Shown in pieces: positions 1 through 36,520 of a stretch of 64,000 nt of DNA. Numbering within the stretch: the stretch's first letter is position 1; every line of letters starts with the position of its first letter. The stretch is from Gigantopelta aegis (Eukaryota; Mollusca; Gastropoda; Neomphalida; Peltospiridae). The stretch covers positions 1 to 64,000 of the forward strand of contig NW_024533058.1 of assembly GCF_016097555.1 (NCBI RefSeq), read 5' to 3'. The notes beneath the pieces are model-generated. The model was not told the origin of the DNA. It made no database searches and worked only from the letters and a program-made list of their open reading frames with translations. Made by a program: the position numbers and the translations under genes.

Positions 1-1545
1 AAATTTGTGCTTGGTTATATTGTTTTAGGTATTCTGATTTTGATGCTAGCTTAGAACTTAATTCTGATGGTACTTTACAAACCTGATCCAGCACGAATAC
101 ACGCAAGGTTTATACTCCATCAGATAGAACATATCATATATACCAGTGGGAACTATTGGGTTCAAATCACCTGAAGGTTAATTCATATGATTGGTAACAG
201 TGCTGGGTCCATGGCCACCATTACCAACTAAAGCAAACCTATTCAGGTATACTACAAAATTCAGGCTGGGCAGGTTATAAATGTTCGGTATCGTGTTTAT
301 ATACAGTGTGTCTTTTCCCGATTGTCAAATGGAACATATGTTTGCACAGACACCAACCGTGTTTTATTTGTAAAGACCCAACCTCAAACATTTAAGGCGG
401 GACCATTACCGTTGTAGAGTGTTTAGTTGAATGTGTCATTAAACTGCTATGAATTAGGAGGACCAAAAGTATTTATCTCAGTATAGTGTAGGGGGTAATA
501 AATAATCTAAATGGATATTAAATTGGATGTTGGGGGGACTTATAAGATGGGTGTAACTCTTAACTAGGCTATGGAACCAGAGAACTGGGTCCTAGGAGTT
601 TCTAATGACCCTCCTCTGTATTGAGTCAAGTGACTATAACTGACAGTGATATACATGAAATATTACCAGTATGCCCTAATATAATAAGAATTGTTATACT
701 CTCTATATATACCTCTATCGGTTTCCGCCTTTCTCTAGATTGGAAGATTTAAAAAAGAATTTAATGATATACCCTTCTCTTATTAAATTATGATGCGATG
801 TTTAGAAGTTGATCCTAGAAAGAGAGCATCAGCTTATGAATTATTAGGTCAGGTACTTATTTTACCAGAAATGAAAGGGGATAGCTTAGCACATTATTAA
901 AACTTAACATTTCCTCTATTATTTAACTATTGCTATTTATTCCTTTGTTAACGATAATTTATTATTCATTTAGTGTTTTTGTTATAACTATTAGGATTCT
1001 TGTGTTCTTATAATGCGTTGAGTTGGATCTTGTGTTTTTTTAAGTATATGTGAGTAAAGTGTACTACTTGAATCCGATGTCTCATCAACAAAACAGAAAG
1101 TCAAGGTAATTTATAGAGTATCTTGTTACTCTAATATTAATTCATGTACTAATATAGACAAGTGTAGTAGCCCAGTCAATATGGAATGATAGAACTTAGT
1201 GCTACAGTTAATATACTTGGAAGTGAGTTCAATTATTACTATTTTTACAATACAATATTATGATAGTATATTTAGTCATTTAATTGGTTTTATTGCTATC
1301 TATCTACAGATGAAGATGATGCCATAGTCCCTTCACTAGCACATTATGATGTTAGTACAGAACAAGCTACAGAAGAGATGCTTTTGATTTTGAAAATAGT
1401 CAAGTAAGATTTCACCTTATAAATCAAATTTACATATTTATATTATTTCAATTACTATATGCAGTAGTACCATATTATGATGTTAATGCAGAACAAGCTA
1501 CAGAAGAGATGCTGTTTGATTTTGAAACAAGTAAATTTTAGCTAA
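1..1545 (+). pseudogene. Protein kinase, 3' half (left-arm copy)
   Basis: Exons read like the C-terminal part of a protein kinase domain. Near position 40 is SDFDASLELN, a DFG-loop equivalent with DFD. Around 140-250 is GTIGFKSPE, the activation-loop end and APE-type motif, better preserved in the right-arm copy. Around 790-850 is RCLEVDPRKRASAYELL, the usual last helix of the domain. Two short exons at about 1,309-1,400 and 1,464-1,540 both encode AEQATEEMLFDFE-like peptides (the first has TEQATEEM), so the tail contains a duplicated exon. The N-lobe lies outside the window. Small frame breaks make this copy unreadable as one chain; the kinase subfamily cannot be told. Confidence 0.55.
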
Positions 1546-1739
1546 ATTTTTGTATTTTTTGAATGGTGTAGTAGAATTGTATTACTTCACAATGATAGAC
1601 TCCATACAGAGTTAATGTATTACTAGATTTTGGAATTTCCGATTAAAATCTTTCACTTGTTTCTTAATTTATTTATTAGTTCTCACAACACGTGCTCCAC
1701 ATTGGTATCTGTTACATATTATAGTTCATACCACATTCA

Positions 1740-2640
1740 TAGAGAATATGGCTAATATCAAGTGTGCACCCTTAGAATTCATAACGGAGGTAAGTATTTA
1801 CTACTATGTGATTATACACATATTATTTAAATTATGTAGATCCCCCTAAAACTATGTACTTTACTAATGTCTTTAACGATAAAGATGATACTTGTAAGTG
1901 AGCAATCTGTTGTATTCTCTTATTGTCTTACGTACTTGTTTAGACCCACCTACCTCTTCTCCAATTCAGGTTGAGATGGATGGGAGTTATACTTTTGTTG
2001 GAGTTCAAAGGTTCATATTGAAACTGCCTGGATTGCAGTACAAAAAAAATTAAACAGCATATCGCTGTAGCTTGTGTCGATATTACTCTGTAATCTACAT
2101 GATACTATTACATCATAGGCTTTTCGTTGAGTTAGTTTTTTTCAAATTTTTGACAATACAAAGCAAAAGTTTTGAACTGAAAAAGACATGTAATATAATA
2201 TATTTTATGATGAAGGTACAGAGTACTAAGGTTTCCAGCTGGTACAACAAATAAGAATCCTAACACCAGGGCTCCCCATTTGACTCGCTGTGTCTGATAG
2301 ACACTAGTCCCAGATAATAAACACTAAAGACCATATTAACAGTCCAAGAAGAGAGGGCAAGACGTACCATCTAAGTTTGAGTGGATTGTCCTTTAAAAAA
2401 ATTCTCTGAAAAACCAGACACTGTTAATTAACCAAATAAATGGCAATCCAAAACAACCAATATGAAACTAACGTCGACAGATCTTTAACTTTTCTTCTGG
2501 AGACACGTTATTGAGATTCATAGCGGTTGTATGTAGCTTTACTCAAAACAAGCAAACGCCCATAATTATTGGAAGGTGTGGTTTGTGAGTCACCACACCG
2601 CCAACGTGTTTCAAAAAACGTTGTAAGTACGAAGTGGTGC
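1740..2640. other. Gap between kinase tail and EFTUD2 (left arm)
   Basis: A short plus-strand exon-like piece near 1,751-1,793 begins MANIKCAPLEF and ends at a GT donor; it is kept in the right arm near 34,790-34,832. I cannot assign it to a family. The rest, to the EFTUD2 start at 2,645, is AT-rich with no convincing coding pattern and presumably holds the EFTUD2 promoter. Confidence 0.3.
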
Positions 2641-2644
2641 TGAA

Positions 2645-5600
2645 ATGGATGGCGATTTATATGACGAGTTTGGTAACTACATAGGACCTGAGTTAGACAG
2701 TGATGAGAGTGAACAAGAAAGGGAACATTCTGAGGGGGTGGTATGGTCTCCTTGTAATAATCTTCTCCATGTGACCTTGTATAGGATGATGAGAGAGAAG
2801 GTGATGAAGAAGTTATGGAAATTGGTGAAGATGCTCTTGCTTTACAAGCACCCGAGACACAAAACTATTGTATTACATGAAGATAAAAAATATTATCCAA
2901 CAGCTGAAGAAGTGTATGGACCTGATGTTTTGAGGTAGCATTAATTAGAATATTGCCTTATTTGGGCATATTTTAGACGATAATACAAGAAGAAATATAC
3001 AAACCACTTACTGGTTAGTTTATGTTTGTTACCATAGTAACCTGACCACACCTCTTAGAACCATCATTCTCCTGTTTAAAAAGCGAAAGTTTCTCTACCA
3101 AGAGAAGGAGTTACCAACAACAACATATAAAATAGAGTGAGTTAAACAGGTTTGTAAATCCTGTTTAACTTGTATGGCAGGTTTTTAGCTGATTTAATGG
3201 ACAGTCCAGAGTTAATCCGAAATTTGGCTATTGCAGACATTTTCATCATGGCAAGGTGAGTGTTACATATCAATATTTTACATGTTTACATGTTTTGTTT
3301 GTAGACAAGTTTTATAGATAATTTAGTTGAGCAGACTCATCCTGATGTGTTTTAGTAGAAGAAAATAAAAATGTGAGTTATATAATTGTATTAATAACTA
3401 CAGGGTTTATCTCATTATTAGTTGAGATATACAGATACACTGTTCACAGAACAAGAGGTTTGTACGTCAGGACTCCACACCCTCAACAATTAACATCCTA
3501 TATCTAGCGGAGAGTTAGTATAAAGAGTAGACCCCTCTCATTAGTTCTACCGGATTCTAAAGACAAGTCATATCTCATTAATTTATACGATACTCCAGGT
3601 CAGTAATGAGTGGGTGTGGTTATTTGATCAGCATGATGTCATGGTCAATATATAGCACTCTCTGACTATAATTATAATGACCTACCAAATAAGGCTAATA
3701 TTAATATCATCAGATTAATTATCACGGTATTAATTGTTATGTTGCATGTGACAGTCCACCGATATAACATGTTGTTAATATAATAGTCACATGACTTGTC
3801 ATTTATAGGCCATGTGAACTTTTCTGATGAGGTTGACAGCAGCTTTCGTCTCTGTGATGGTGTGATAATAATAATCACTCCACTAATATACTCTAATTAT
3901 TAATATATTATCAGGTTATGATGAATACAGAGAGATTATTAAAACATGCGTACAAGAGAAGTTAGCTATTACAATATGTGTGTGTGTGAAGGAACTCAGC
4001 CTCACGAAGGAGCCTTTGTGAGTCTATATGTTTCCTAGTATATTATATGTTATTGTTTGTGTAGATTGATTGACTGATATTGGAACTAAAATTGCCACCT
4101 CTTGATGCTTATTATAAACTCAAACATACTTTCTATGAAATAAACACTTTATTAAAGTTAGTTAATTTATGAGATGACTCCTGTTATTAGTACATTTCAT
4201 TAGTTTGTACTCAGAGTCATCAGAAAGTCTGATCATTTCCCTGTTGCTAGGCAACGTCTGTTTTGGTTCCAGTCAATATGGCTTTTGTTTTTACGCTCGA
4301 ATCTTTTGCTAAACATTTATGTTGATATGTATGGTAAGAAGGGGGTGTGGTTTATAAGACATGTACATTTGTACAGGTGGAGGTTTCTCAGCAGTGGAAT
4401 TTGCTAAGAGACTCTGGGGAGATATTTATTTTTACAAAGCAAAGTTAGTTATTATAAACACAATGTTGTCATAATATGATATTTTAGACATACATTTACA
4501 AAGAAGCAGCCTTCAACTGACTCACAAAGAACATTTGTTGAATTTATTTTGGAACCTCTGTAAGTCATTAGTGTGTTGCTATGGTAACTGTCATGTGACC
4601 TTATGTAGATACAAGATATTTGCTCAGACAGTAGGTGATGTTGATACAACATTACCTCAAGTTTTAGACGAACTTGGTAAGGAACCATTGATCATGTGAC
4701 TTTAATTAAATGGGTGTGGTCTTATAGGTATATATTTAAGTAAAGGAGAACTCCAGATGAATATTAAGCCACTATTACGTTTGGTATGTCAGCGATTCTT
4801 TGGTGAGGCCAGAGGTATGTTAATAGATTACATCTGTAATATAATTATTAACATGTTATCAGGTTTAATTGATATGTGTATTAAACATATCCCTTTACCA
4901 GTTGATGCAGCTAAGACAAAAGTATGTATCCATTACATTATTATGTGTCCATTTACTTTGTTGTGCATCCATTTCTTATAGATTGAGCACACATATTCAG
5001 GTGTTCTTGATGAGGAGTTAGGAGAAGCCATGTTGTCATGTGATGCTGATGGACCTCTTATGGTACATATCACTAAATTATATCCTACACAAGATGCTAC
5101 ACAATTCCATGCTTTCAGACGTGTCATTAGTGGAACATGTAAGTGATCATGTGACTGTCATATGACTGATATATGCTCTAGTATATAGCGGACAACAGGT
5201 AAAGGTTTTAGGTGAAAACTATACATTAGAAGATGAAGAAGACTAGGGTGTGTCCTGTAGGACGTCTTTAGGTTACTGAGGCAAGGTGGGTGGAGCTATT
5301 TAATTGATGTTGTTTTTATTATTGTGGTAGATATTCTATTGAAATCAATCGAGCCCCAGCTGGTAATTTTGTTCTAATTGAAGGAGTTGATGCTACAATA
5401 ACTAAGACAGCAACGATCACACAAATCAGTGATTGTGATGAGGTCAGAGGTTTAAGGTCATATTGCAATAATATTAATTTATTACAATAGGCCCAAATAA
5501 ATTATTAAGATAGCTGTTGAACCAGTAAATCCATCAGAGTTACCTAAAATGTTAGATGGATTAAGAAAAATTAATATGAGCTATCCTTTACTTGTTACAA

Positions 5601-6120
5601 AGGTTAGTATATAATTATTATTATAATGAATGTCTTTGTGTCTTTAGGTGGAAGAGAGTGGAGAGCATGTGATATTAGGGACGGGAGAATTGTACTTGGA
5701 TTTGTGATGCATGACTTGCGTAAAATGTATTCTGAAATTGGTATGCTCCTCCTTCTCCTAATTAATGAGTCATGCCCCTCTCATTAGATATTAAAGTGTG
5801 CTGATCCAGTTGTTGTATTTTGTGAGACAGTTGTAGAAACCTCATCTTTAAAATGTTTTGATATGACGCCAAACAAGAGGTAACCCTGTTATCATGTTGA
5901 TTAATCAGTTACTGATATAAATATAGAAAACTTACAATGATAGCAGAACCTTTAGAGAAAGGATTAGCTGAAGACATTGAGGATGAAGTTGTCCAGATCA
6001 CATGGCCAAAGTATGTAATATTTGACCACACCCCTTCATTAAAACATTGCTTAGAAAACGATCGGCAGAGTTCTTTCAGACAAAATATGAATGGGATTTA
6101 TGGCGAATGCTTCTCTCTAG
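2645..6120 (+). pseudogene. EFTUD2: EFTUD2/Snu114 U5 snRNP GTPase, 3'-truncated (left-arm copy)
   Basis: EFTUD2 is the EF-2-like GTPase of the U5 snRNP that controls spliceosome activation. The chain starts [20 protein letters not shown] at 2,645, almost identical to vertebrate EFTUD2. Later exons give the DTPG loop (G3) near 3,590, RLWGDIYF near 4,410, IKPLLRLVCQRFFGEA at 4,760, [14 protein letters not shown] near 5,020, [16 protein letters not shown] near 5,530 and [20 protein letters not shown] near 5,945. The last recognisable exon, [11 protein letters not shown], ends near 6,105; the following conserved block and roughly the last 300 of about 970 residues are absent. Many small indels also break the frame. 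Introns are short. Likely non-functional as it stands, because domains IV-V are missing. Confidence 0.85.
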
Positions 6121-6290
6121 ATGAGTGAGATGAAGGAGCCACCTGTGTTGAGTAAGCCATTTGAGATGAAGTGACATCCATGATATTTGTAGCAGACTTT
6201 GTAACATGAGGAGTATCTCCACAATAAACAGCAGCAACATTATTAACATTTTTCTGTTGACTGTATGATAATGAAGTTTGATGGACAATT
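6115..6290 (-). pseudogene. Opposite-strand exon at EFTUD2 break (left arm)
   Basis: Directly after the EFTUD2 break the open frame runs on the other strand. It includes TKSATNIMDVTSSQMAYSTQ, Ser/Thr-rich, followed by VAPSSHSS. The better copy is at 30,340-30,456 on the plus strand. I do not recognise the family. The join of two head-on exons suggests a rearrangement junction rather than a normal gene neighbour. Confidence 0.35.
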
Positions 6291-7254
6291 TCCTATTTGG
6301 GAGTCAGGTTGAGTTATTAGATGTTCTGAATTATCTATTGAATTAGATGAAGAAAGGTCTCCTCATAGTCAAAAGACTCATAACAAAATTTTACGAAATA
6401 GTCATGTAAGTTAATATCTATTCAATATTGTAATTATAAATAACTTTTATAGAATGCAACAAATTTAAATTCATTTAAACATATGCTTACTTGCATATAT
6501 ATTTCATACTTGCAATTGTTTTTTTAAATACATTTGAAGGAATTTTAAAACTTTAATGTCATATTATAATACTTATTTGTATACCCTATACGTGTACTTA
6601 TGTACTGTATGTACTCAAGATGTATATTGATCTTTATCTGACTTTAGGTTGTTGATCTATTGGTGGCATGTCTAACTGTGGATGACCAGTAAGTTACTCC
6701 CTATTTATAATAAACTGGATTAATCCTGAACAAGCCCCTCATTACTTTAAATTTAATATTATTTTACTATATATATAAACCTTCAACACATGCCATAAAC
6801 ACATTAACTCTTTTAATTATCTATTTTATACACAAGACATTTGTATTGTCCAAAATTGTCAAATAGTGTATAATTACTTATTTTCAAGATTTGAGTGCTA
6901 ACATTAAGAGAATTTATAATTTGAAGGCTCTGATAATTGTAGAAATTTTCTTTTACTTATAACATCATTTGCTAATTGAAACAAGACTATAAAAAATTGT
7001 CCTAACATTTTGAAGTATTATTTGATAATGTTTTTGGCTTGTTGTTATAAAGGATTTGAATACTTCTATGTTCTATAAAAATTTTGGTCATTTTAAATAT
7101 AATCGATTAAAATACATATTCTCTTATAGTACATTGAATGTTAAAATCTATGAAGTGTTAGAAGTATTTGCTAAAGTGCCAAGTTCTCGATGTCACATGT
7201 ACCTAGCTCAGGCTAATTTCTTACACATTTTCTTTACTAAGGTACAACATGTAT

Positions 7255-7325
<71 letters not shown>

Positions 7326-7420
7326 ATATATATATATATACTGGTTTATATTCTTATACATAGCTTGTACTGGTATTGGAGTTGACGAGGTGATCAGTAC
7401 ATTAGTTAAAGATGAAATGT
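6290..7420 (+). pseudogene. Unrecognised multi-exon gene fragment (left arm)
   Basis: At least four exon-like blocks with splice sites lie on the plus strand: ELDEERSPHSQKTHNKILRN near 6,340-6,405; VVDLLVACLTVDDQ near 6,648-6,691; TLNVKIYEVLEVFAKVPSSR and the following AQANFLHIFFTK near 7,130-7,242; and CTGIGVDEVISTLVKDEM near 7,366-7,420. A (TA)n tract sits in the intron before the last block. The same blocks occur in the right arm, so the reading is probably real coding sequence. I do not recognise the protein. The last exon is the final part shared by both arms, so the gene is probably cut at the duplication border. Confidence 0.45.
7259..7341. repeat. (TA)n microsatellite
   Basis: Nearly pure TA dinucleotide tract in an intron of the left-arm gene fragment. 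The matching right-arm tract is at 29,184-29,292 and is longer and more interrupted. Confidence 0.95.
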
Positions 7421-7579
7421 AAGTATTAATATACATAATGTACTAGTGTGTTTTTTGAGTAAGGATGTTGTTGTTCTAAGTTAGAGCAGGGAATTAGAAG
7501 TCAGCATCTTTACTTGCAGTTTTTGTAATGTTAATTTTTTTTGCTTTTCAATAAATCATTAAACACACCTTTTATAAAT

Positions 7580-8480
7580 TGACCATCTGGAGCAAACAAT
7601 AAAATATTACAGAGTTTAGTTTAACACAAGGTACAATGGGTTTACTCCAGGCTATGTTTAAGCTATGTCTTCTCTGACAAGTTTGTTTTTTTCTTGCATC
7701 TCTGTAGCTATTTTGCTAAACTATCTTCTTGAGTTTCAACTCTTTAACAATGCAAAAAATTCACATCACTGGCTTATTATAGTTAACCCTGTTTGATTAA
7801 AATTGGAAAATAGAATTGGAATATCTGTCCTCGGCTTTCGTAATTTCCAGCTTAAGCAGAAACGTTCATAAAATGTGAATAGGAATTACAATGTCCATCC
7901 TTTGCTTCAGTACTTTAATAGTTTGAAAAGCTTCAGTATGACTCACCAATAACTTTGCCATTACAATGTCACACCCAAGTTAGCTCAAGATGAACAGAAT
8001 ATATTATGAAACAATTGAGCCCAACTAAGTCTTGACTTAGCTCATAATCATTGCCCACTCATCTAATGGACAAACTCAAGTTACTCAACTACCCCCTAAC
8101 TGCAACATTAGTTGCTTTGTCATAACACAAAATCAAATTATGACAACTTGTAGTAACAGTTTCTTAAAAAATAGTAGTCTATATCTGATTTTACTACAAG
8201 AAAATCCCAGTTTCTGATTGAGTTTGGAACAAATGATTGATGCATGTAGTTGCTTTGGTTAACGACTTTGTGGAGATAATTGTGTTACTTTCATAACATT
8301 TGTCAAAATGTGAAGGGACATACTGAACACACTCTCCGGGAAATCATAGAAAGTAGTGTGAATTGAGGAGAGGGAGGTTTAGACAAAAACATTGTTGATG
8401 TAAGCTTGAAATGTCGGTAAGAAGGGAAAAGGTCATCATAGTTACAATCCCATCAACGTTTAATGTGAGAAGTAACTAAG
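7580..8480. other. Non-coding stretch inside the left arm border
   Basis: AT-rich DNA between the inner arm border and the repeat family at 8,486. No open frame with a recognisable domain, splice pattern or tandem repeat was seen. Confidence 0.4.
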
Positions 8481-8485
8481 AGGTT

Positions 8486-8666
8486 TTTCTATTTGTCCAT
8501 CCCAGGAAATGGATGTACTATATATCACTTAAGATGTATTGAAAAGTAACTATGAATTAGGGAAGGTTAATAATTTGTACTGACAACTAACAGATACAAA
8601 TATTGTGTCCTTGAATTTTATTAAGGCAATATATGATTATGACATCATATAGCAATGTTAAATTAA
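8486..8666 (+). mobile_element. Dispersed repeat segment, inverted copy at 26,370-26,525
   Basis: From 'tctatttgtccatcccag' onward about 180 bases match the reverse complement of 26,370-26,525, including the block around 'gtactgacaactaacag'. The same start motif, tctatttgtccatcccag, recurs at 8,872 within the next element. This looks like part of a DNA-transposon end. The MULE-like protein remnant at 26,080-26,290 lies next to the other copy. Confidence 0.6.
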
Positions 8667-8791
8667 TGTATATGTCCATTTTTATATCTATTGATCCATT
8701 ATTTAATTAGAGTATTATAAGCATATTCATGACACTATAAATATATTTATAACATTGTCGCAATAACAAGATTTGTCTGGACATATAATAC

Positions 8792-9405
8792 TTGCTATGA
8801 ATTTTGTAATATGGTTAACTTGTCAGATTACCTTTTGAGAAGGTGGTCACATGTTTTTCACATTGTTTTTTCTATTTGTCCATCCCAGTGGTTTAAATGT
8901 TCATTATGGGTAGCTCAAAGAATGCTATTTCTATAAACATATTCCAACCTTAATAGACTATACTTTTATGTTAGTATTGTTAAGAGATCTTTCCATAAGT
9001 TCAGGTTTTGATTATTAAATCTTATTTTTGTCTAACAACTGACAAAGATATTAAAGGGGAATTCTTTATGTGTAAGTTACATTAGCAGATGTATGACTTG
9101 TTTTACACTAAAGTATTAGTATGGGACTAGAACAAGTGTCCTCAATATAGAGGTTGTATAATACACTAAAGTATTAGTATGGGACTAGAACAAGTGTCCT
9201 CAATATAGAGGTTGTATAATACACTAAAGTATTAGTATGGGACTAGAACAAGTATCCTCAATATAGAGGTTGTATAATACACTAAAGTATTAGTATGGGA
9301 CTAGAACAAGTATCCTCAATATAGAGGTTGTATAATACACTAAAGTATTAGTATGGGACTAGAACAAGTGTCCTCAATATAAATATTGTATTAATACACT
9401 AAAGG
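8792..9405 (+). mobile_element. Minisatellite-bearing repeat element, copy A
   Basis: About 300 bases of unique sequence (8,792-9,100) are followed by five units of a 58-bp tandem repeat beginning 'tacactaaagtattagta' and ending near 9,405. The unique part is repeated almost exactly at 26,614-26,910 (same strand) and 28,690-28,945 (opposite strand). Units in copy A are nearly identical. The arrangement of conserved end plus subterminal tandem array resembles a DNA-transposon terminus. No coding capacity. Confidence 0.8.
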
Positions 9406-9538
9406 AGAAGACTACTATGAGTCAGAAGAAATGAGAGAATATAAAGAGAGCAATGCAAAGGAAATTGAAGGAAATGAACTATTAAAGCTTTTTATTTCTA
9501 ACTCTGAAACTGTCTATGAGTGGAAAGAAGACAACAGG
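9403..9538 (+). CDS. Possible orphan exon before SRCR gene A
   Basis: An open block reads SEEMREYKESNAKEIEGNEL, then LLKLFISNSETVYEWKEDN, and ends at a good GTAAGA donor. It is acidic and polar with no known domain. A short following block near 9,590-9,663 (LLLVNWYNILNNDKD) could be the next exon. It may belong to SRCR gene A or to a captured gene; not recognised. Confidence 0.25.
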
Positions 9539-10149
9539 TAAGATAAAACAAATAACAATTATATTAGTTAATGCACATTATAATTATATAGGGGCTCACT
9601 ATTGCTAGTAAATTGGTATAACATATTAAATAATGATAAGGACATACTTAATAAAGGTTTATGAATGTCATATTGGTAATACATTATATATTATCATACT
9701 TCATTATATTATATTACAATGTATATCATCTAATGATAGGGCTCACCAACTGTTTTTCGAATAACATCCATCATTTCTTGTATTTTGATAACTACCAATT
9801 CAGCAATATCACTGTAAAGAATAACAAATTCAGTGACCAATATATATAGTACTCTTTTTTATGTATTTTAGTTTTATTGTTCCAATGAAAACGATAATGC
9901 ATGCACTAAATCTAATATTAATATATGTTTCCATTAGTTGTATAAATGTTAAGTCAGTCTTAGAAAATAACAGATACACTAAAAATGCTTATCAGTTTAC
10001 TTAGATATCACATGTAGGCATGTCATAGACAATGGTCATGGTATAGTTAATATATGTGTATGTTACTATGGCAACAGTCATTGGGTGTTAACTATGAAGC
10101 CACACATGTACACACTAAACTGGTACTTAAGACCTGCTAAATGAGATAG

Positions 10150-11671
10150 CAGGCAGTTTTGTCACAATGGAAGGTAGTGTTGAATTAGAATCAGATCTTG
10201 ACAGAGAAGTGCTACTGATGCCAATACTATCTGTAAACAATTAGGATATACTGGATATGTTAGATATGATCATTTAACACTGTAAGTAGGAGACTTTTAA
10301 ACTTGCACAGTAATTATATTTTCATGCAGACCTGGATCTTCTCGTCAACCTATATGGTCTACATACATGAGCAGTAGTTCAAATGATAGATGTTTTGGGA
10401 CAAGTAATTCATGTCCTAGATCTAGAGTGACCAGCTGTACTCATTCTGAAGATATCACTGTCTCTTGTAGTAAGTAACATTGCTGACTGTTTACTGTTAG
10501 TTATGATATAATACTTAGCATATTCACAATATTCTACTAATGACATTACAATTGGATTCTGTTCAACTTCATCAGGTAGAATCACATTGTCCATTTATAA
10601 TATTTATAATATACTTCTGTTACTCTACAGTTATTGGTCCTGTTGTTGGAGGTACTTTAGGTGGTGTTGTCATTCTTATTATTATCATAGTTATAATCTC
10701 CTCTGTTTTCTGTTGGTACAAACATATTGGTATATGTGCTAACTACACAAAAGGAGAAGACCACGTACAACAGATAGAGATCAAAATGATGAGATTGAGT
10801 TAGATTCTTTGGTACATAATTCCAAACCAATGGGCACAACCTCAAATACCAACACTATGCAATCTACATCAACATCTCATCAAAACACTTTACCAAGTAC
10901 CACTGTAAACACAACACCTCGTTATACTGGTAATACTTTACCTAATGTGGTACCTCAAGCTACTCCTAATCCACACGTCCAATATACTACTCTACCTACT
11001 CAAGGTGGTCACAACCCTTCACCTTACTACTATGTCCCACCTACTAATGTAGCTTTTAAGAATCGTCAACCTACTACATATATGCCTCATCCATATTCAC
11101 AAGTTATATATCCACCCCAACAACACATGTATCCCAGTACATATATGGTACCAGGTCAAACTCTACCTCAACAATTTCACCAACAAATAATGATCCCACA
11201 GCAACAATATTTGCAACTTCAGTTGCAACCAGTGACTACTCAACAGTTAACTGGCTCCAACATAGCTCCAACTCCTCAACAAGTGACTCCACAGTCAACT
11301 ATGTCCAATACAGCTCCAATCATTACTGGTTCTCCAACTCCTCAACAAGCAGCAACAATTCAAGATGCTCCTACACAAAACCCACCACCCCAAAGTGGGA
11401 CTTCTGCTACTGCAGTTACTGGTGGTAGTTCAACTATACCAGTAACAAGGAGTAATGAAGCAATTATTTCCATTCCTTCAACAATGACAACAACAACTAC
11501 TAATATTTCTACTAGTAGTAATGAGGCATATGGAGCAAGCAATCCCCTCCTGTTGGTTCAGAGGAGACATACGATGTGGTGGGTGGACCAGCAGTTAATG
11601 AAAACACAGTTTATGAAGTTGTGAAGTCTGAAGGAGCTCCACCTTCATATTCTGCTAACAATACTGAATAA
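10150..11671 (+). CDS. SRCR-domain type I membrane receptor A with long Gln/Pro/Thr-rich tail
   Basis: Exons near 10,195-10,280 (TICKQLGYTGYVRYD) and 10,331-10,470 (IWSTYMSSSSNDRCFGTSNS; then CTHSEDITVSC) form the C-terminal part of a scavenger-receptor cysteine-rich domain. The exon at 10,630 starts VIGPVVGGTLGGVVILIIII, a single membrane segment, then basic/polar WYKHIGICANY. The tail (10,809-11,671) is about 280 residues of Gln, Pro and Thr and ends TVYEVVKSEGAPPSYSANN. TVYEVV fits the immunoreceptor switch-type pattern TxYxxV, and PPSY is a PPxY WW-ligand. A one-base loss in a C run near 11,548 shifts the last 40 codons. The N-terminal part and signal peptide were not found. An extracellular recognition role is inferred from the SRCR family. 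Confidence 0.7.
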
Positions 11672-12268: not shown

Positions 12269-12269
12269 T

Positions 12270-14280: not shown

Positions 14281-15550
<1,270 letters not shown>

Positions 15551-16768: not shown

Positions 16769-17329
16769 CAGTACTTTTGAAAGGCAATGAGACTGTCCCA
16801 TCATTTTCTTTGCAGTCTACACATATATAAGCTGACATATGTGTTATTTCCTCTTTACAAGCAAGCCAAGCTAATGTGTCTGCTATTTCCCACTTACAAA
16901 ATGCCATTGACTTACCATATGTTATTCCCTTGATAATAACTGACAGCTCAACAACATTTTACTCCAAAGGTCAAGAAATATCTAATCATAAACTGGTTAT
17001 TAAGTTCTATATTGTCTGACTATAGGCTTTAATAGTACATTACAATCATAATTCTCCTGACTTGACATTTGGTCCAACCTGCTATGTAAATTGGTTAGGA
17101 AAAGGTTTAGAAGTTTATAGTTGGTTTGCATACAAAAAATTGTAACATGAGCACTCAGGCTTGCTCTATTTCTGTGGAAACCTCAAACCCATTATTTAAT
17201 CTATATCACATGGCCAAAATATTATAGAACTACCTGGAGCACTTTGAGTACTAAATTGTAGATGATTGCAAGATGTTTGTAATTACTTTTAAAAATTATA
17301 ACTATATTATTAATAACTGATACAATAAC

Positions 17330-17700
17330 ATGTTTAAACATTGTTTCTACTTGTGGTTTTTAATTATTATCTTATTTATGGTACTAGGTTTATCAAATGG
17401 TGCTCTGAGGCTATCTCGTTATGGATATAGCTCATCATCCTATTACTATGGTATTGTGAGGATCTATTATAATTATGGATGGGGTAATATCTGTTATGAT
17501 TCCTACTACAGTTCTACTGAAGCTAATGTCATCTGTCATCAGTTAGGATATACTGGAGCCTCTAGTTACTCTAGAGCTGGATTAGTGAGGTTAGAATTAT
17601 GTAATAATCAAACTTTACATTATCTCTGTCTAGTTTATGGCACTGATTCCTATTCTATGAGGATGGATGATCGTATCAGTCAATTTGACTGCTATGAAAT
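17330..17700 (+). pseudogene. SRCR protein C, N-terminal part cut by a hAT element
   Basis: The frame starts MFKHCFYLWFLIIILFMVLG, a clear signal peptide with cleavage near LSNG/A, and runs into an SRCR domain: ALRLSRYG, then GIVRIYYNYGWGNICYD, VICHQLGYTGASSY and a short Cys-containing stretch. After about residue 115 it passes into unrelated Lys/Cys-rich sequence belonging to the end of the transposon remnant at 17.7 kb. The rest of the receptor (second half of SRCR, membrane segment) is missing. It is in the same orientation as receptors A and B, so it is the third member of the cluster. Confidence 0.7.
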
Positions 17701-19105
17701 AATATTAAGAGTCAAAAAATTTTTTTCAAAATGTAAAAATGCATGCAATATGTTAAAATGTGAATGTTATGAGTTACATTGGAAAATTCTGTGTTGTCTT
17801 GTCGATTTATACATTGACAAAGCTCGAGAAAAATCAAAATGTTCAATAGCTTTTCCTTCCAGTGAGATTCTAAGTAAAGTATCAACTGTATCTATATGTA
17901 ACTGATTACATAACCTTGTCTTAATTCTATTTGAAGCACTAAAACCTCTTTCACAGGGTACGGAGGTAACAGGAATGACTAAAATTATTTGAATTAACTT
18001 GGCCATCTCAGGAAACATATCAGAGTGAAGTTGTAGAAATGTAGTGGCAAATTGATCAAACTGAAAATTCTGAAAATTGCGAATTATGAATGGTTGAAAT
18101 AATTGATATTCACTTCTTAGTTGAGAAGAATCAAGTGGAGGAGGTAAGGAGCTGGATTCAGAGGAAGAGGGACAATAATGTTCAATGATGACTTCTAATG
18201 CCTGCTCTCCAAACTGTTCTGAGCTGCATGCAGTAGAAACTGAGGGTGGGTAGTGCTTAGGGTAAACTATCTTAAATGCACTTAGCAAATCAGTGTCTAT
18301 AAATCTGTTAGATAGATTAATTTTAAGTGCATCAATGAACTGCCTCCTTGCTGTATTAAATGATGTTATAAAGGATGTAATCACCATTGTCATGTGCTGT
18401 TTTGAACTGTTTGAAGAAAGGACCATCTTTTTGTCTTCATGTTATCTAAAGCATCAACTGCTGCCAATGACCTTTGGTTGAATAACAGACATGTCAATGT
18501 CTGTTAACTGAAATGTTAGAGATAGTTTAGTTAGTATAGAGAGAATATCCTTTACAAAGTGAGTAATGGTGAGAAATTTGTAGGAACAGATACAGCTATG
18601 TATACCGATTGCCGTAGGATCACCTTGCTGTGCTTCATGTTCAAAGAAGGTCACTAAAGCTGGAATAGATCTCAGAACAGCATCAACAGTCACATCAAAA
18701 CTAAGCCATCTGACTTGATACAGGCGTTTCATTTTAATTTCTGGTTCTTCTAAAATTCTCTGTACCTCAGTCAGACCTTCAGTATGTACACTGGAATGAC
18801 TAAAATAAGTATAAATTGCTGAAAGACTCTTCTGGTACTGTGCAATTGCTGGCACTTTTTTGGCAGCTTGTGAAGAAGCCAGAGCTAATTTATGTGCTGC
18901 ACAATGCAATGAGAGAAGGTAAGGATTTTTTCTTTTTTAGTAAAGCAGCCACACCATTGTCACACCCTGTCATTACACTGGCCCCATCAGACCCAAACCC
19001 AAGACAGTTAGTATGGTTTAAATCATAGTTCTCTGTTACACCACCAAGTGATTCTTCAATGGACACTGCATCACATTGGGCTAGCTTAATATACCCCAAA
19101 AACCT
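17700..19105 (-). pseudogene. hAT-family transposase remnant (ZNF862/KIAA1586-like)
   Basis: Three overlapping minus-strand blocks follow the order of a hAT transposase. At 19,099-18,890 is LGFGSDGASVMTGCDNGVAA, the RNase H-like Asp region. At 18,909-18,454 is MHCAAHKLALASSQAAKKVP, then YQVRWLSFDVTVDAVLRS. At 18,426-17,767 is the dimerisation region with IPVTSVPCERGFSASNRIKT, then LLRISLEG. The N-terminal zinc finger and first catalytic region are absent, and the blocks are in different frames. It separates SRCR protein C from the LRGUK-like exons, and the chain breaks off exactly where the LRGUK sequence begins near 19,105. Dead copy. Confidence 0.85.
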
Positions 19106-20577: not shown

Positions 20578-20625
20578 GGTATTATATATAGTAATATATG
20601 TATAATATATGTACCCCTTTATATA

Positions 20626-21909: not shown

Positions 21910-21970
21910 TAAAACAATAATTTTAATAGGGAAAATAAAATTATGAAAAAATATATTATTGTTAGTTTCA

Positions 21971-24395: not shown

Positions 24396-24499
24396 TACAG
24401 AACAATACATGTGCATGTCTGGAGTGAAGGAAACAATACCTTAGAGATTCATCACCCACTTTAAACACTTATATAATTATTATAGCTAAGTACTTGCTA

Positions 24500-25160
24500 T
24501 TTGCATTATCTATCAACTCACTTTGCTCTTTGCCCTGGTGTTGTTGCATGCATTCTGCAGTCTTCTAGCTCCTCCCAACATCTTTGTACATAGGAACATA
24601 TGGTCAAGCATATGTGAGAGAGGTTTGACTAAGTCAACTGTTGGAAAAGGCCAGCCTCAACACAATCAAAAGACTTCATGTATAATGTTTTAATTAGTAA
24701 ATAATTATATTAAAAGTTAAAGACTTCTCTGTCAATATAATACAAAAACTTGTTTTCATAAACTATTTTTTTAAAACAAAGTTTAAAAGTTTTCTCTTAT
24801 GAATAATAACAATAATGTACAATACTACATAATAAATCTATAATTTACAGTTAATTCATATCATGAGGTTTCTAGTAACAGTGCGCCTTTTACTGAAGAA
24901 ACAAAAGGTCTCCCAAGAGACCATTCAAAGCCCACAACATTTATACTAAAACAAATTAATTATTGCTGACATGCAGTTCTTGTTGTGAAAAGTTTATCAA
25001 ACACCATCTCATATTACATTAAAACCTCCTCTTGTAACACCCTCAACACGTCAGCATATGTTTTTATTAAAAGAATACACGCACCTGAATCTTGTGTACA
25101 TGTATTATACTCAATAATTAATACATAATACATGTAGGAATAATACACCCACACACAATT
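24500..25160. other. Intergenic, nothing recognised
   Basis: AT-rich DNA between the receptor start and the ARL8 3' end. No conserved block seen. Confidence 0.4.
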
Positions 25161-25164
25161 ATTA

Positions 25165-25787
25165 TTAATTAATCAGCATAGTCGTTCCTAAGATCGTAGC
25201 TTGTTGTATAAGCCATTGCAAAGTTATATCTAATATAGTTCATAACATTTAAAGGAACAATACTATAATGATTACCTATGTTTTCTCGCTCTTTACAAGA
25301 GATGGAATAGCAACAAATTTCGCGATCTTTAATCTCACTTAATCCCCTAGAGATAAAAGTGTATCATTCATCCAATTCTTTCTCAAAATATGTATCCATT
25401 TGTCAAACTATACATCCATTCATCTTATTTGTTTTATTATATCCCATCCATTCTTACATTCTCTCTATTACTTCTCTTTCCCTCAATGCATTGGGTAAAT
25501 CAACTTTATTACCCAAAACAAGTACCTACAATAACATAATCGTCAAAATTACAAGATAATTTGTGGGTGTTGCTTATAGGTATACCAGCTAATTGTGGCT
25601 TATCAAGAAGACTATGTAGCTCATTTTTTGACGCCTCAATTTTTTCATGGTCTGCAGCATCTACCATATAACTGAGAGAGAACTACAAATTAATAGCAAT
25701 AAACAACATACACAATAGCTGTGACACCTCTGCAATATCAATCCCACATGCTACGAAATCTAGGCTGACCGCCAATGTCCCAGAGCT
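25165..25787 (-). pseudogene. ARL8: ARL8 3' exons
   Basis: Minus-strand exons encode the C-terminal two thirds of ARL8: LWDIGGQPRFRSMWD (switch II with the DxGGQ motif), [45 protein letters not shown] (the NKxD guanine-specificity motif), IKDREICCYSISCKERENI and DITLQWLIQQ, with a stop at 25,165. The exon with the P-loop and switch I is missing; upstream of the splice acceptor at 25,787 is repeat DNA. A premature stop-like shift occurs after SMWD. Exon 1 is at 20,512 in the opposite orientation. Confidence 0.85.
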
Positions 25788-26049
25788 AATAAGAAGAGGG
25801 AGTGTTCGTTTGAGTTAGTACGGGTTCGCCTACTCTAATTTTAACACAAAAGTACGGTTTTGCCTACGGATACCGTAATTCTAATTAATTTTTTTTATTA
25901 CTAAAATGCCAAACATAGCAAGAAGTGATAATAGTATATATACAGTATTATGATAAATAAATAAATAAATAATAGAAGTACATATTATAGATACTTATAT
26001 GATATGATGTTTTGAATTTTTCATTGAATTAACATTCATAAAATTTAAT

Positions 26050-26290: not shown

Positions 26291-26613
26291 TCTCAACACA
26301 TTAACTTATAATTCTTTAATCTTTACTTTTCTAACATTAAATTGTACACTCTTTACTTATCATTTAACATTAATTTAACATTGCTATATGTCATAATCAT
26401 ATATTGTCTTAATAAAATTCAAGGACACAATGTTTCTGTTAGTTGTCAGTACAAATTATTAACCTTCCCTAATTCATAGTTAGTTTTCAATACATCTTAA
26501 GTTATACATAGTACATCCATTTCCCGGCCTTATCTTTTTTTAATATCTTAAGACAATGCTTTTATATGAAACTAATTTAAGTATGGTGCTCTTGGAAGTA
26601 ACTACCTTATACA

Positions 26614-27345
26614 TGCTATGAATTTTGTAATATGGGTTAACTTGTCAGATTACCTTTTGAGAAGGTGGTCACATGTTTTTCTATTTGTCCATCCCAGTGG
26701 TTTAAATGTTCATTATGGGTAGCTCAAAGAATGCTATTTCTATAAACATATTCCAACCTTAATAGACTATACTTTTATGTTAGTATTGTTAAGAGATCTT
26801 TCCATAAGTTCAGGTTTTAATTATTAATCTTATTTTTGTCTAACAACTGACAAAGATATTAAAGGGGAATTCTTTATGTGTAAGTTACATTAGCGGATGT
26901 ATGACTTCTTTTTATACAAACTCGGATATTAAGGACACGTGTTCTAGACCCATACTAATACTTTAGTGTATTATACAACCTCTATTGTTCTAGTCCCATA
27001 CTAATACTTTAGTGTATTATACAACCTCTATTTTTCTAGTCCCATACTAATACTCTAGTGTATTATACAAACTCTATTGTTCTAGTCCCATACTAATACT
27101 TTAGTGTATTATACAACCTCTATTTGTTCTAGTCCCATACTAATACTTTAGTGTATTATACAACCTCTATTGTTCTAGTCCCATACTAATACTTAGTGTA
27201 TTATACAACCTCTATTGTTCTAGTCCCATACTAATACTTTAGTGTATTATACAACCTCTATTGTTCTAGTCCCATACTAATACTTTAGTGTATTATACAA
27301 CCTCTATTGTTCTAGTCCCATACTAATAATACTTTTAGTGTATGA
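26614..27345 (+). mobile_element. Minisatellite-bearing repeat element, copy B
   Basis: The unique part (26,614-26,910) matches copy A in the same orientation. The tandem array that follows is made of about nine units of 46 bp that lack about 12 bp ('attgaggacact'-like) present in the 58-bp unit. It also runs in the reverse orientation relative to the unique part when compared with copies A and C. So both unit length and array polarity have changed in this copy. Confidence 0.8.
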
Positions 27346-28280: not shown

Positions 28281-28389
28281 AAACAATGTGAAACATGTGA
28301 CCACCTTCTCAAAAACTTTGTCTAGACATACAACAAACTAATGAAAGAAAGTTAACTTAATTGTCATTCATTACATGTGCATACTTACT

Positions 28390-28950
28390 AATACTTTAGT
28401 GTATTATACAACATTTATATTGAGGACACTGGTTCTAGTCCCATACTAATACTTTAGTGTATTATACAACCTCTATATTGAGGATACTTGTTCTAGTCCC
28501 ATACTAATACTTTAGTGTATTATACAACCTCTATATTGAGGATACTTGTTTCTAGTCCCATACTAATACTTTAGTGTATTATACACAACCTCTATATTGA
28601 GACACTTGTTCTAGTCCCATACTAATACTTTAGTGTATTATACAACCTCTATATTGAGGACACTGGTTCTAGTCTCTACTAATACTTTAGTGTAAAAAAC
28701 AAGTCATACATCTGCTAATGTAACTTACACATAAAGAATTCCCCTTTAATATCTTTGTCAGTTGTTAGACAAAATATAAATTTAATAATTAAAACCTGAA
28801 CTTATGGAAAGATCTCTTAACAATATACTAACATAAAAGTATAGTCTATTAAGGTTGGAATATGTTTATAGAAATAGCATTCTTTGAGCTACCCATAATG
28901 AACATTTAAACCACTGGGATGACAAATAGAAAAACATGTGACCACCCTTA
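28390..28950 (-). mobile_element. Minisatellite-bearing repeat element, copy C
   Basis: Reverse-complement copy. The 58-bp array (about five units) lies at 28,390-28,695 and the unique part at 28,695-28,945, ending against the right arm of the inverted duplication. A further short piece of the unique part lies at 28,283-28,330, also inverted. Copies A and C have the same internal polarity. Confidence 0.8.
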
Positions 28951-29099
28951 AAAGGTGTGGTTTAATGATTTATTGAAAAGCAAAAAAATTTAACATTACA
29001 AAAACTGCAAGTAAAGATGCTGACTTCTAATTCCCTGCTCTAACTTAGAACAACAACATCCTTACTCAAAAACACACTAGTACATTATGTATATTAATA

Positions 29100-29211
29100 C
29101 TTACATTTCATCTTTAACTAATGTACTGATCACCTCGTCAACTCCAATACCAGTACCAAGCTATGTATAAGAATATAAACCAGTATATATATATATATAA
29201 TATTATATATA

Positions 29212-29292
<81 letters not shown>

Positions 29293-30250
29293 GTACAATA
29301 CATGTTGTACCTTAGTAAAGAAAATGTGTAAGAAATTAGCCTGAGCTAGGTACATGTGACATCGAGAACTTGGCACTTTAGCAATACTTCTAACACTTCA
29401 TAGATTTTAACATTCAATGTACTATAAGAGAATATGTATTTTTAATCGATTATATTTAAAATGACCAAAATTTTTATAGAACATAGAAGTATTCAAATCC
29501 TTTTATAACAACAAGCCAAAAACATTATCAAATAATACTTCAAAATGTTAGGACAATTTTTATAGTCTTGTTTCACATTAGCAAATGATGTTATAAGTAA
29601 AAGAAAATTTCTACAATTATCAGAGCCTTCAAATTATAAATTCTCTTAATGTTAGCACTCAAATCTTGAAAATAAGTAATTATACACTATTTGACAATTT
29701 TGGACAATACAAATGTCTTGTGTATAAAATAGATAATTAAAAGAGTTAATGTGTTTATGGCATGTGTTGAAGGTTTAATATATATAGTAAAATAATATTA
29801 AATTTAAAGTAATGAGGGGCTTGTTCAGGATTAATCCAGTTTATTATAAATAGGAGTAACTTACTGGTCTCCACAGTTAGACATGCCACCAATAGATCAA
29901 CAACCTAAAGTCAGATAAAGATCAATATACATCTTGAGTACATACAGTACATAAGTACACGTATAGGGTATACAAATAAGTATTATAATATGACATTAAA
30001 GTTTTAAAATTCCTTCAAATGTATTTAAAAAACAATTGCAAGTATGAAATATATATGCAAGTAAGCATATGTTTAAATGAATTTAAATTTGTTGCATTCT
30101 ATAAAGTTATTTATAATTACAATTATTGAATAGATATTAACTTACATGACTATTTCGTAAAAATTTTGTTATGAGTCTTTTGACTATGAGGAGACCTTTC
30201 TTTCATCTAATTCAATAGATAATTCAGAACATCTAATAACTCAACCTGAC
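29100..30250 (-). pseudogene. Unrecognised multi-exon gene fragment (right arm)
   Basis: Minus-strand twin of the gene at 6,290-7,420. It has the same exon blocks: GVDEVISTLVKDEM near 29,115-29,160, the AQANFLHIFFTK block near 29,310-29,345, and SPHSQK..NKILRNSH near 30,150-30,215. The (TA)n intron tract is longer here. It ends at the inner border of the arm near 28,955. Function unknown. Confidence 0.45.
29184..29292. repeat. (TA)n microsatellite
   Basis: AT-alternating tract in the right arm, the counterpart of 7,259-7,341, with several 'taatat' interruptions. Confidence 0.95.
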
Positions 30251-30264
30251 TCCCAAATAGGAAA

Positions 30265-30454
30265 TTGTCCATCAACTTCATATCATACAGTCAACAGAAA
30301 AATGTTAAAATAATGTTGCTGCTGTTTTATTGTGGAGATACTCCTCATGTTACAAAGTCTGCTACAAATATCATGGATGTCACTTCATCTCAAATGGCTT
30401 ACTCAACACAGGTGGCTCCTTCATCTCACTCATCTAGAGAGAAGCATTCGCCAT

Positions 30455-30456
<2 letters not shown>
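30265..30456 (+). pseudogene. Opposite-strand exon at EFTUD2 break (right arm)
   Basis: Right-arm twin of the exon at 6,115-6,290. The open stretch reads GDTPHVTKSATNIMDVTSSQ and continues Ser-rich up to the EFTUD2 junction. No family recognised, no membrane segment or catalytic motif visible. It may be one exon of a gene cut by the same event that truncated EFTUD2. Confidence 0.35.
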
Positions 30457-33933
<3,477 letters not shown>

Positions 33934-35044
33934 TTCAGCACCACTTCGTACTTACAACGTTTTTTTGAAACCACGTGGCGGTGTGGTGACTCACAAACCA
34001 CACCTTCCATAATTATGGGCGTTTGCTTGTTTTTGAGGTAAAGCTACATACAACTCGCTATGAATCTCAATAACGTGTCTCCAGAAGAAAAGTTAAAGAT
34101 CTGTCGACGTTAGTTTCATATTGGTTGTTTTGGATTGCCATTTTATTGGTTAATTAACAGTGTCTGGTTTTTCAGAGAAGTTTTTTAAAGGACAATCCAC
34201 TCAAACTTAGATGGTACGTCTTGCCCTCATCTTCTTGGACTGTTAATATGGTCTTTAGTGTTTATTATCTGGACTAGTGTCTATCAGACACAGCGAGCCG
34301 TCAAATGGGAGCCCCTGGTGTTAGGATCTTATTTGTTGTACCAGCTGGGAAACCTTAGTACTCTGTACCTTCATCATAAAAATATATTATATTACATGTC
34401 TTTCAGTCAAAACTTTTGCTTTGTATTGTCAAAATTTGAAAAAACTAACTCAACGAAAAGCCTATGATGTAATAGTATCATGTAGATTACAGAGTAATAT
34501 CGACACAGCTACAGCGATATGCTGTTTAATTTTTTTAGTACTGCAATCCAGGCAGTTTCAATATGAACCTTTGAACTCCAACAAAAAGTATAACTCCCAT
34601 CCATCTCAACCTGAATTGGAGAAGAGGAGGTGGGTCTAAACAAGTACGTAAACAATAAGAGAATACAACAGATTGCTCACTTACAAGTATCATCTTTTCG
34701 TTAAAGACATTAGTAAAGTACATAGTTTTAGGTGGATCTACATAATTATAATATATGTGTATAATCACATAGTAGTAAATACTTACCTCCGTTATGAAAT
34801 TCTAAGGGTGCACACTTGATATTAGCCATATCTCTATGAATGTGGTATGAACTATAATGTACAAGATACAATGTGGAGCACGTGTTGTGAGAACTAATAT
34901 AAATAATTAAGAAACAAGTGAAAGATTTTAATCGGAAAATTCCAAAATCTAGTAATACCATTAACTCTGTATGGAGTCTATCATTGTGAAGTAATACAAT
35001 TCTACTACACCATTCAAAATACAAAATTTAGCTAAAATTTACTT

Positions 35045-36520
35045 GTTTCAAAATCAAACAGCATCTCTTCTGTACTTGTTCTGCATTAACATCATAATAT
35101 GGTACTACTGCATATAGTCAATTGAAATAATATAAATATGTAAATTTGATTTATAAGGTGAAATCTTACTTGTACTTATTTTCAAAATCAAACAGCATCT
35201 CTTCTGTAGCTTGTTCTGTACTAACATCATAATGTGCTAGTGAAGGGACTATGAGCATCATCTTCATCTGTAGATAGATAGCAATAAAACCAATTAAATG
35301 ACATAAATATATATCATAATATATATTGTAAAAATATAATAATTGAACTCACTTCCAAGTATATTAACTGTAGCACTAAGTTCTATATCATTCATATGAC
35401 TGGGGCTACTACACTTGTCTATATTAGTACATGAATTAATATTAGAGTAACAGATACTCTATAAATTACCTTGACTTCTGTTTTGTTGATGAGACATCTG
35501 ATTCAAGTAGTAACACTTTACATCACATATACTTAAAAACACAAGATCCACCTCAACGCATTATAAGAACACAATAGAACTAATAGTTATAACAAAACTA
35601 ATGAATAATAAATTATCGTTAACAAAGGAATAATAGCAAAGTTAAATAATGAAGGAAATGTTAATTTTTAATAATGTGCTAAGCTATCCTATTCATTCTT
35701 GTAAATAAGTATTATGACCTAATAATTCATAAGCTGATGTCTCTCTTTCTAGGATCAACTTCTAAACATCTCATCATAAATTTAATAAGAGAAGGTATAT
35801 CATTAAATTCTTTTTTAAATCTTCCAATCTAGAGAAAGAGGAAAGATAGAGATATATATAGAAGTATTACAATATTATTATATTAGGGCATACTGGTAAT
35901 ATCTATGTATATCATTGTCAGTTATAGTCACTTGACTCAATACAGAGCGAGTACATTAGAACTCCTAGGACCAGTTCTCTGGTTCATAGCCAGTAAGAGT
36001 TACACACCCATCTAATAAGAACATCAATTAATTCTCATTTATTATATTAATACACTATACCTGAGATAAATACTTTTGGTCCTCCTCATTCATTAGCAGT
36101 AATGACATCACGAACCACATTAACACAGGTAATGTACCAGCCTTAAATGTTTGAGGTTTGCTATTACAAATACAAGTTTTGTGTCTATGAACATATTTCC
36201 CATTGACAATAGAACAGACACACTTTTATAACCATATACCGAACATTTATACTGACTAGTGTATTTTATTATTACCTGAATATGTCTGCTTTAGTTGTTA
36301 ATTGGTGGCAATGACCATCAGCACTGTTACCAATCATATGAATATAACCTTCAGGTGATTTGAACCCAATAGTTCCCACTGGTGATATATGATATGTTCT
36401 ATCTGATGAGGTATAAAACCCTTGCAGTGTATTACGTGCTGATCAGCGTTGTAAAGTCCATCAGAATTAAGTTCTAAGCTAGTCATCAAAATCAGACATA
36501 CCTAAAACAATATAATCACA
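35045..36520 (-). pseudogene. Protein kinase, 3' half (right-arm copy)
   Basis: Minus-strand twin of the kinase fragment at 1-1,545. It keeps GTIGFKSPEGYIHMIGNS and TTKADIF (activation segment and the DxxxxG region start) and the CLEVDPR...AYELL end of the domain near 35,740-35,830. The repeated tail exons with EQATEEMLFDFE lie near 35,060 and 35,190. No catalytic-loop or glycine-loop exon is present here: the sequence upstream of the DFD exon (36,530 onward) is not recognisably kinase. The 5' half of the gene may therefore be absent from this arm. Interpreted as a partial gene carried by the duplication. Confidence 0.5.

What the first reader, a model, noticed from the sequence alone, without database searches (positions are those of the whole stretch)
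1..36520. Inverted duplication with arms of at least 7.5 kb around a 21-kb receptor-rich spacer
Both arms carry the same kinase 3' half, the same truncated EFTUD2 and the same unknown gene, introns included, with very high identity where I compared them. The spacer holds three SRCR genes or fragments, a sushi-Ig receptor and several broken host genes. Inverted repeats of this kind can keep themselves alike by gene conversion, can flip the spacer by recombination between arms, and in other animals accompany fast-evolving immune or allorecognition loci. Two joined haplotypes in an assembly are the main alternative.
Basis: partly seen in the sequence, partly recalled or inferred. Interest (0 to 1): 0.78.

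Follow-up and report, generated by a model that had tools for sequence, protein, structure and literature searches.

The report
Near-identical inverted arms at receptor cluster
The start of this contig carries two almost identical 7.5-kb copies of one stretch in opposite directions around an immune-receptor-like gene cluster; they look alike most likely because the rearrangement is recent (or because one locus was printed twice), and the contig probably belongs to a sponge-like animal sequenced along with a mollusc-like host.

Summary
The inverted duplication is in the sequence: 12-7574 matches 36518-28949 on the other strand. The window opens a 121,885-bp contig, so arm A is cut by the contig end; the outer limit of the arms is not a biological edge.

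The 95% identity misleads. Gap openings outnumber mismatches 194 to 100; over 4500-7574 there are 2 substitutions in 3,060 bases. The differences look like unpolished long-read error, worst at the contig end. The best candidate allele (C1581, from 46.2 kb on) differs by 1.92% substitutions, so ordinary joined haplotypes fit poorly.

A relative, C2003, follows arm A past 7574 to 7785 but leaves arm B at 28948, so arm B's inner edge is the derived one: either the joining point or a later 1.27-kb deletion. A tail variant shared by the two inner arrays favours the deletion.

I favour a young inverted duplication in cis (0.42) over a mis-traversed heterozygous inversion (0.22), a chimera (0.20) and gene conversion (0.09, one weak hint). 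RAD52 also occurs, diverged, on a large contig, so this contig is probably a cobiont's. Reads are needed to decide.

The parts
12..7574 (+). Arm A; its outer end is the contig end, not a breakpoint
28949..36518 (-). Arm B, inverted copy of arm A; similarity stops at 36518 because the contig starts at base 1 on the A side
28948..28950 (.). Derived edge: arm sequence joined to the body of element E3. Either the joining point of the rearrangement or a later deletion of the 1.27 kb present beside arm A. A 7-base string found in both parent sequences lies beside it (by eye)
7575..8787 (+). Sequence next to arm A and absent next to arm B; relative C2003 stays collinear with arm A up to 7785
8788..9404 (+). 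Element E1: body plus array of 58-bp units (a satellite found on 22 other contigs)
26367..27343 (+). Element E2: third copy of the body, its array in the opposite orientation
28386..28956 (-). Element E3: truncated body plus array. Lacks E1's 13-bp duplication and sides with E2 at one base, with E1 at two others; shares with E1 a variant last array unit not seen in 8 satellite loci checked
2627..2935 (+). EFTUD2 N-terminal exon in arm A
   Evidence: PF16004 E 4.8e-21
5308..5487 (+). EFTUD2 middle exon in arm A; its copy is in arm B at 31090-31317 (-), read by eye
14475..15105 (+). SRCR domain exons in the spacer
17321..17902 (+). SRCR fragment in the spacer
17770..18936 (-). hAT transposase remnant (dimerisation region matched in 17770-18441); related copies on C992 and C2271
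21974..22453 (-). Ig-domain exon with a transmembrane-like tail (tail read by eye)
46224..53515 (.). Stretch with a candidate allele on contig C1581 (46225-53515, 93.5%; 1.92% substitutions over 47900-53515)
51551..52041 (-). RAD52 exons; a one-base frameshift splits one exon, while the C1581 copy gives one longer hit across that place

Best explanation
A very recent inverted duplication in cis. A break-and-rejoin or template-switch event placed a reversed copy of the arm at the far end of an SRCR/Ig receptor cluster. Its inner edge is either at 28,949 (one junction, between pre-existing inverted elements E1 and E3) or at the array ends 9404/28386, followed by a 1.27-kb deletion in arm B. The arms are alike because they are young, not because conversion maintains them. 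Arm A ends with the contig because reads anchored in the sequence inside 7575 reach only about that far, and further out the copy cannot be told from arm B. Shown: the arms, near-zero substitution divergence, which inner edge is derived, the error gradient. Inferred: that both arms lie on one chromosome, their age, and the mechanism.
For: Arms carry 2 substitutions in 3,060 bases over 4500-7574, against 1.92% for the candidate allelic contig. The least diverged 1.5 kb of that pair predicts 12.4, P = 0.0004. C2003 is collinear with arm A through 7785 but meets arm B only from 28948. E1 and E3 share a variant last array unit seen in none of 8 other satellite loci, as a duplication reaching 9404/28386 would give. 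Private indels are similar in both arms against C2003 (10 in A, 8 in B over 6298-7240), and the arm-arm gap rate outside the first kilobase (1.57-2.64%) is not above that of the allelic pair (2.97%), so there is no sign of one locus's reads split in two. Inverted blocks also occur on C1733 and C2003.
Against: No read data. The contig end falls inside arm A. No third, allelic arm copy turned up (covering 1000-3000 and 4500-8870) and no contig carrying the other end of a longer arm (36530-46200). Consensus error is only an indirect guide to depth and is blind to shared read sets. Outgroup counts are uneven: arm A is worse over 729-1338, while arm B has twice as many private indels as arm A (42 to 21) over 1308-4417. 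E1/E3 differ more than the arms do. A heterozygous inversion needs only the two arm copies that are seen.
Confidence: 0.42

Rival explanations
1. Heterozygous inversion in trans: one haplotype carries arm-7575...28949, the other has this 21.4-kb segment inverted, so the same arm abuts 28949. The assembler entered the shared segment from one haplotype and left it on the other, printing both alleles of one arm in inverted orientation. No duplication exists.
For: Explains the derived edge at 28,949 and the apparent 1.27-kb loss with one clean inversion; the searches found exactly two near-identical arm copies; substitution divergence rises with distance from the breakpoint (0.07% inner, 0.84% further out, 1.92% at 47.9-53.5 kb). 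C1733 shows an inverted block within the spacer.
Against: Predicts contigs joining an unknown far flank to near-identical spacer ends; no long match of 97% or more turned up (only the best candidates are scored there). C1733 and C2600 look like separate, 2.5-7.4% diverged versions of spacer parts, so the spacer may not be collapsed. The array tail shared by E1 and E3 then needs an older local inverted copy. The outward rise is mixed with read error.
Confidence: 0.22
2. Chimera: a false join at 28,949, from a chimeric molecule or a low-coverage assembly step in a minor-organism contig; the second arm is the same locus printed twice.
For: Near-identical arms; unpolished contig with raw-read-like sequence at its end and a one-base frameshift in RAD52; arm A ends with the contig.
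Against: Not a missed-adapter foldback, because 19-21 kb of spacer without a long inverted repeat separates the arms. Random ligation would rarely join two places of one 36-kb stretch (inference). Error in the inner arms is not raised. Repeat confusion at E would have kept 7575-8787, which arm B lacks. E3 is not an exact copy of E1.
Confidence: 0.2
3. Older inverted repeat kept alike by gene conversion at a fast-evolving receptor locus.
For: SRCR/Ig spacer; inner arms nearly free of substitutions (2 in 3,060) beside an E1/E3 pair with 5 in 538 positions and a 13-bp difference, a patchiness that conversion tracts could leave.
Against: 4 of those 5 substitutions lie in a tandem array, where slippage and misassembly are expected. 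No sign of age: no inverted arms were seen on the related stretches fetched, which are short.
Confidence: 0.09
4. Ordinary haplotypes of one locus joined end to end.
For: Heterozygous organism: C1581 against C895 differs by 1.92%, with some 500-base bins as low as 2 substitutions.
Against: Arms differ by 0.07% over 3 kb (P = 0.0004 against the least diverged allelic 1.5 kb); the simple form does not explain the inverted orientation.
Confidence: 0.05

Closest known systems
Inversions flanked by inverted duplications through staggered breaks (Drosophila mojavensis 2h and 2q, PMC3355041, passages seen)
   Same: Kilobase-scale inverted copies of formerly single DNA at the ends of a segment, about 1 to 7.1 kb there
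   Different: There both breakpoints and the uninverted parental order are known; here one inner edge is seen in both states and the second arm is cut by the contig end
Polymorphic inversions mediated by inverted repeats in humans (PMC3961182, search listing only)
   Same: Inverted repeats next to the breakpoints
   Different: Here both orientations of the spacer are not shown, and recombination within E1/E3 alone would have kept 7575-8787, which arm B lacks
Tandem SRCR receptor clusters of the sponge Amphimedon (PMC10855680, passages seen)
   Same: SRCR genes in clusters; that paper counts 158 of 296 in tandem arrays
   Different: The passages seen speak of tandem duplication; inverted duplication was not looked for in the rest of the text

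Membership tests
Inverted segmental duplication in cis | Two inverted copies well above chance | tested here: met
Inverted segmental duplication in cis | Both copies on one molecule | not testable with these tools
   no reads; contig linkage only
Staggered-break inversion | Formerly single-copy DNA in inverted orientation on both sides of an inverted segment, with uninverted order known | tested here: inconclusive
   C2003 gives the older state of one inner edge only
Joined haplotypes | Arm divergence equals allelic divergence | tested here: not met
   0.07% against 1.92%; that C1581 is the allele is inferred from collinearity and identity
Long-read foldback artefact (missed adapter) | Palindrome without spacer | tested here: not met
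   19-21 kb between the arms, with only short local palindromes at 13.9-14.2 and 15.9-16.2 kb
Gene-converted palindrome | Arms older than their divergence, shared by relatives | not tested
   no genome of a relative was searched
Sponge SRCR cluster | SRCR domains in a repeated family spread over many contigs | tested here: met
   many related stretches on C1744 and C1187
Sponge SRCR cluster | The organism is a sponge | tested here: inconclusive
   a COX1/NAD1 piece on C1045 reads sponge-like from memory; no animal database was at hand

The most novel reading that the evidence does not exclude
The SRCR/Ig segment 7575-28949 is an invertible cassette whose orientation has flipped repeatedly among haplotypes, helped by local inverted elements and a 58-bp satellite, so that individuals carry differently arranged receptor clusters and the arms are re-homogenised at each flip.
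Probability: 0.06. Interest if true: 0.7.

Novelty: new member of a known kind. Interest (0 to 1): 0.3.

Why it matters
If the junction is real it shows a very young inversion-type change at an SRCR/Ig cluster in a sponge-like animal, a natural test of whether structural change feeds receptor diversity. It also warns that such contigs inside another animal's assembly can be unpolished and of another species: percent identity and 'broken genes' there must be read with care.

Tried and rejected
Palindrome or foldback at the spacer centre: only short local palindromes at 13.9-14.2 and 15.9-16.2 kb. No tRNA and no Rfam match in the window. Phage collection with 3500-7000: no match. The kinase label could not be confirmed. 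A global MAFFT count (267 mismatches) gave more substitutions than BLASTN (100), because neighbouring opposite indels were set as mismatches; I used the BLASTN counts. Outgroup assignment of arm differences was mixed: arm A is worse over 729-1338, arm B has twice as many private indels over 1308-4417 (42 to 21), which fits no simple depth story. Resampling of allelic bins (0 of 200,000) is not a real test, since its lowest possible sum was 12; I rely on the Poisson figure. The body substitution counts are distorted by E1's 13-bp duplication and were not used. A survey of other contig ends for foldbacks was planned and dropped; only C2600 was read whole, and its self-comparison lists no inverted repeat over 150 bp. 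Paper searches gave nothing I used. The SSU rRNA and EFTUD2-family genome searches did not complete. One search ran but printed nothing, through a wrong BLAST setting, and was redone.
Full report
What was checked. The window is bases 1-64,000 of contig C895 of an unnamed assembly of 1,149,253,464 bases in 5,216 contigs; C895 is 121,885 bp long. Self-comparison confirms the inverted pair 12-7574 / 36518-28949, 95.2% over 7,700 columns, and a second inverted pair 8867-9404 / 28934-28394, 96.7%. The contig starts at base 1, so arm A is cut by the contig end, and the outer limit of the arms at 36518 is only where the comparison runs out.

What the identity means. BLASTN counts 100 mismatches but 194 gap openings. 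The differences rise steeply towards the contig end: 69 of the 100 mismatches lie in the first 1 kb. Over 4500-7574 there are 2 substitutions in 3,060 aligned bases (0.07%) with 48 gap openings; over 1000-4500, 29 in 3,449 (0.84%), many of them neighbouring pairs that are likely misaligned indels. Indel-rich differences with almost no substitutions are what unpolished long-read consensus gives (inference). The interior of the contig is also affected: a RAD52 exon (51551-51845, minus) is split by a one-base frameshift, the two frames matching adjoining parts of a solved RAD52 chain, while the RAD52 copy on contig C1581 gives one longer hit over that place, with one TGA listed. A frame break in genes of this contig is therefore no proof of a pseudogene.

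Alleles. C1581 (34,289 bp, first 10 kb read) is collinear with C895 from 46,225 to 53,515. Over 47,900-53,515 it differs by 106 substitutions in 5,525 bases (1.92%) with 164 gap openings (2.97%); 500-base bins hold from 2 to 33 substitutions. I take it as the other allele; a close paralogue is not excluded. The least diverged 1.5 kb of that pair predicts 12.4 substitutions in 3,060 bases, against 2 in the arms (P = 0.0004). So the arms are not an ordinary pair of haplotypes, unless this stretch happens to be identical by descent.

Which inner edge is derived. C2003 (2.5 kb read; 5.1% substitutions from either arm over 6298-7249) is collinear with arm A across 7574 and on to 7785, but with arm B only from 28948 outwards. 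So the A side is the older continuation and arm B's edge at 28,949 is derived. There, arm B meets the body of an element of which this contig holds three copies: E1 (8788-9404), E2 (26367-27343) and E3 (28386-28956, minus). Two forms are open. (a) E1 and E3 are older separate copies and 28,949 is the joining point: for this speak a 13-bp duplication in E1 that E2 and E3 lack, and one base at which E3 sides with E2. (b) The inverted homology runs through the element to 9404/28386 and arm B later lost 1.27 kb: for this speak two bases at which E1 and E3 agree against E2, their closeness over 8867-9404 (5 mismatches in 546 columns), and a variant last array unit shared by E1 and E3 and found in none of 8 other satellite loci, several of which overlap on one contig. 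I lean to (b). The array is a satellite: the search listed it on 22 other contigs; the body was listed only on C895, on C1582 at 81% and as a 76-bp piece on C598 at 78%. A 7-base string present in both parent sequences lies beside the edge, though the join is not exactly within it (by eye).

Readings. Near-identical inverted arms with one derived edge fit a young inverted duplication in cis, a heterozygous inversion of 7575-28949 that the assembler traversed from one haplotype to the other, or a chimera. The error gradient in arm A is what reads anchored inside 7575 and reaching outwards would give in the first two cases alike. Private indels in the two arms against C2003 are similar (10 and 8), and outside the first kilobase the arm-arm gap rate (1.57-2.64%) is not above that of the allelic pair (2.97%); this speaks weakly against one locus's reads being split. 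Against that, arm B has twice as many private indels as arm A over 1308-4417 (42 to 21) and arm A is the worse over 729-1338. Against cis: no third allelic arm copy (12-1000 and 3000-4500 were not searched) and no contig with the far end of a longer arm. Against the inversion: no contig with near-identical spacer ends joined to a new flank. Low coverage could explain each absence. Gene conversion gets one weak hint, the E1/E3 pair being more diverged than the arm beside it.

Surroundings. The spacer holds SRCR exons (4 of 6 SRCR-looking ORFs matched), an Ig exon and a hAT remnant. Of four homologous stretches fetched from other contigs, two keep C895's order (C2600, with additional SRCR copies and a 3.7-kb extra stretch; C1581) and two have a block inverted: C1733 (24206-25811 followed by 20565-19122 reversed) and C2003 (9530-9837 reversed against its arm part). 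This hints at a structurally restless locus, but contig errors in those cannot be excluded.

Whose contig. Matches to C895 lie almost only on contigs with no position above 0.24 Mb; those listed on the large ones are a simple-repeat stretch, an AT repeat or under 100 bp. RAD52 is found on C3 (a position near 36 Mb; diverged, hits 1.7 kb apart) and on C895 and C1581 (hits about 0.25 kb apart). COX1 is found on C6, reading like a mollusc's, and in broken form on C1045, reading like a sponge's; both readings are from memory. I infer that C895 belongs to a sponge-like animal sequenced along with a mollusc-like host. SRCR expansion in tandem arrays is known in a sponge (PMC10855680, passages), and the Halichondria panicea transcriptome held more than 600 SRCR genes, most receptor genes being expressed in some individuals only (PMC8242945, passages). 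Inverted duplications flanking inversions are a known product of staggered breaks (PMC3355041, passages).

Verdict.

Noticed in passing
window 9104-9404; 22 other contigs: The 58-bp tandem unit is a dispersed satellite, e.g. hits along C2899 from 3,872 to 11,192.
   Followed up: partly
window 1000-6300: EFTUD2-bearing arm sequence has relatives at 65-89% on at least nine other contigs (C2787, C1373, C1120, C3095, C2217, C1079, C665, C1659, C2191), several times over on C1120: an amplified segment family.
   Followed up: partly
window 6298: Relatives on C2003 and C1921 begin, and those on C1341 end, at this very base, so the truncated EFTUD2 is followed by an older junction shared by both arms.
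   Followed up: no
C1733:1-3330 against window 19122-25811: Inverted block order, suggesting a further inversion of about 20.6-25.8 kb between versions of the spacer.
   Followed up: partly
window 43425-46224: C1581 loses similarity to C895 left of the tandem array at 46.2 kb; C895 has a retroelement remnant there, with a reverse transcriptase match and an integrase match below Pfam's cut-off.
   Followed up: partly
contig C895:79800-99850 (L012-L014): A cluster of direct repeats, about 67-91% alike and up to 1.9 kb long, not identified.
   Followed up: no
C1045:51008-51428 (L026): Broken COX1 with a neighbouring NAD1-like fragment that reads sponge-like under code 4 (from memory): mitochondrial insertion or unpolished mitochondrial sequence.
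   Followed up: partly
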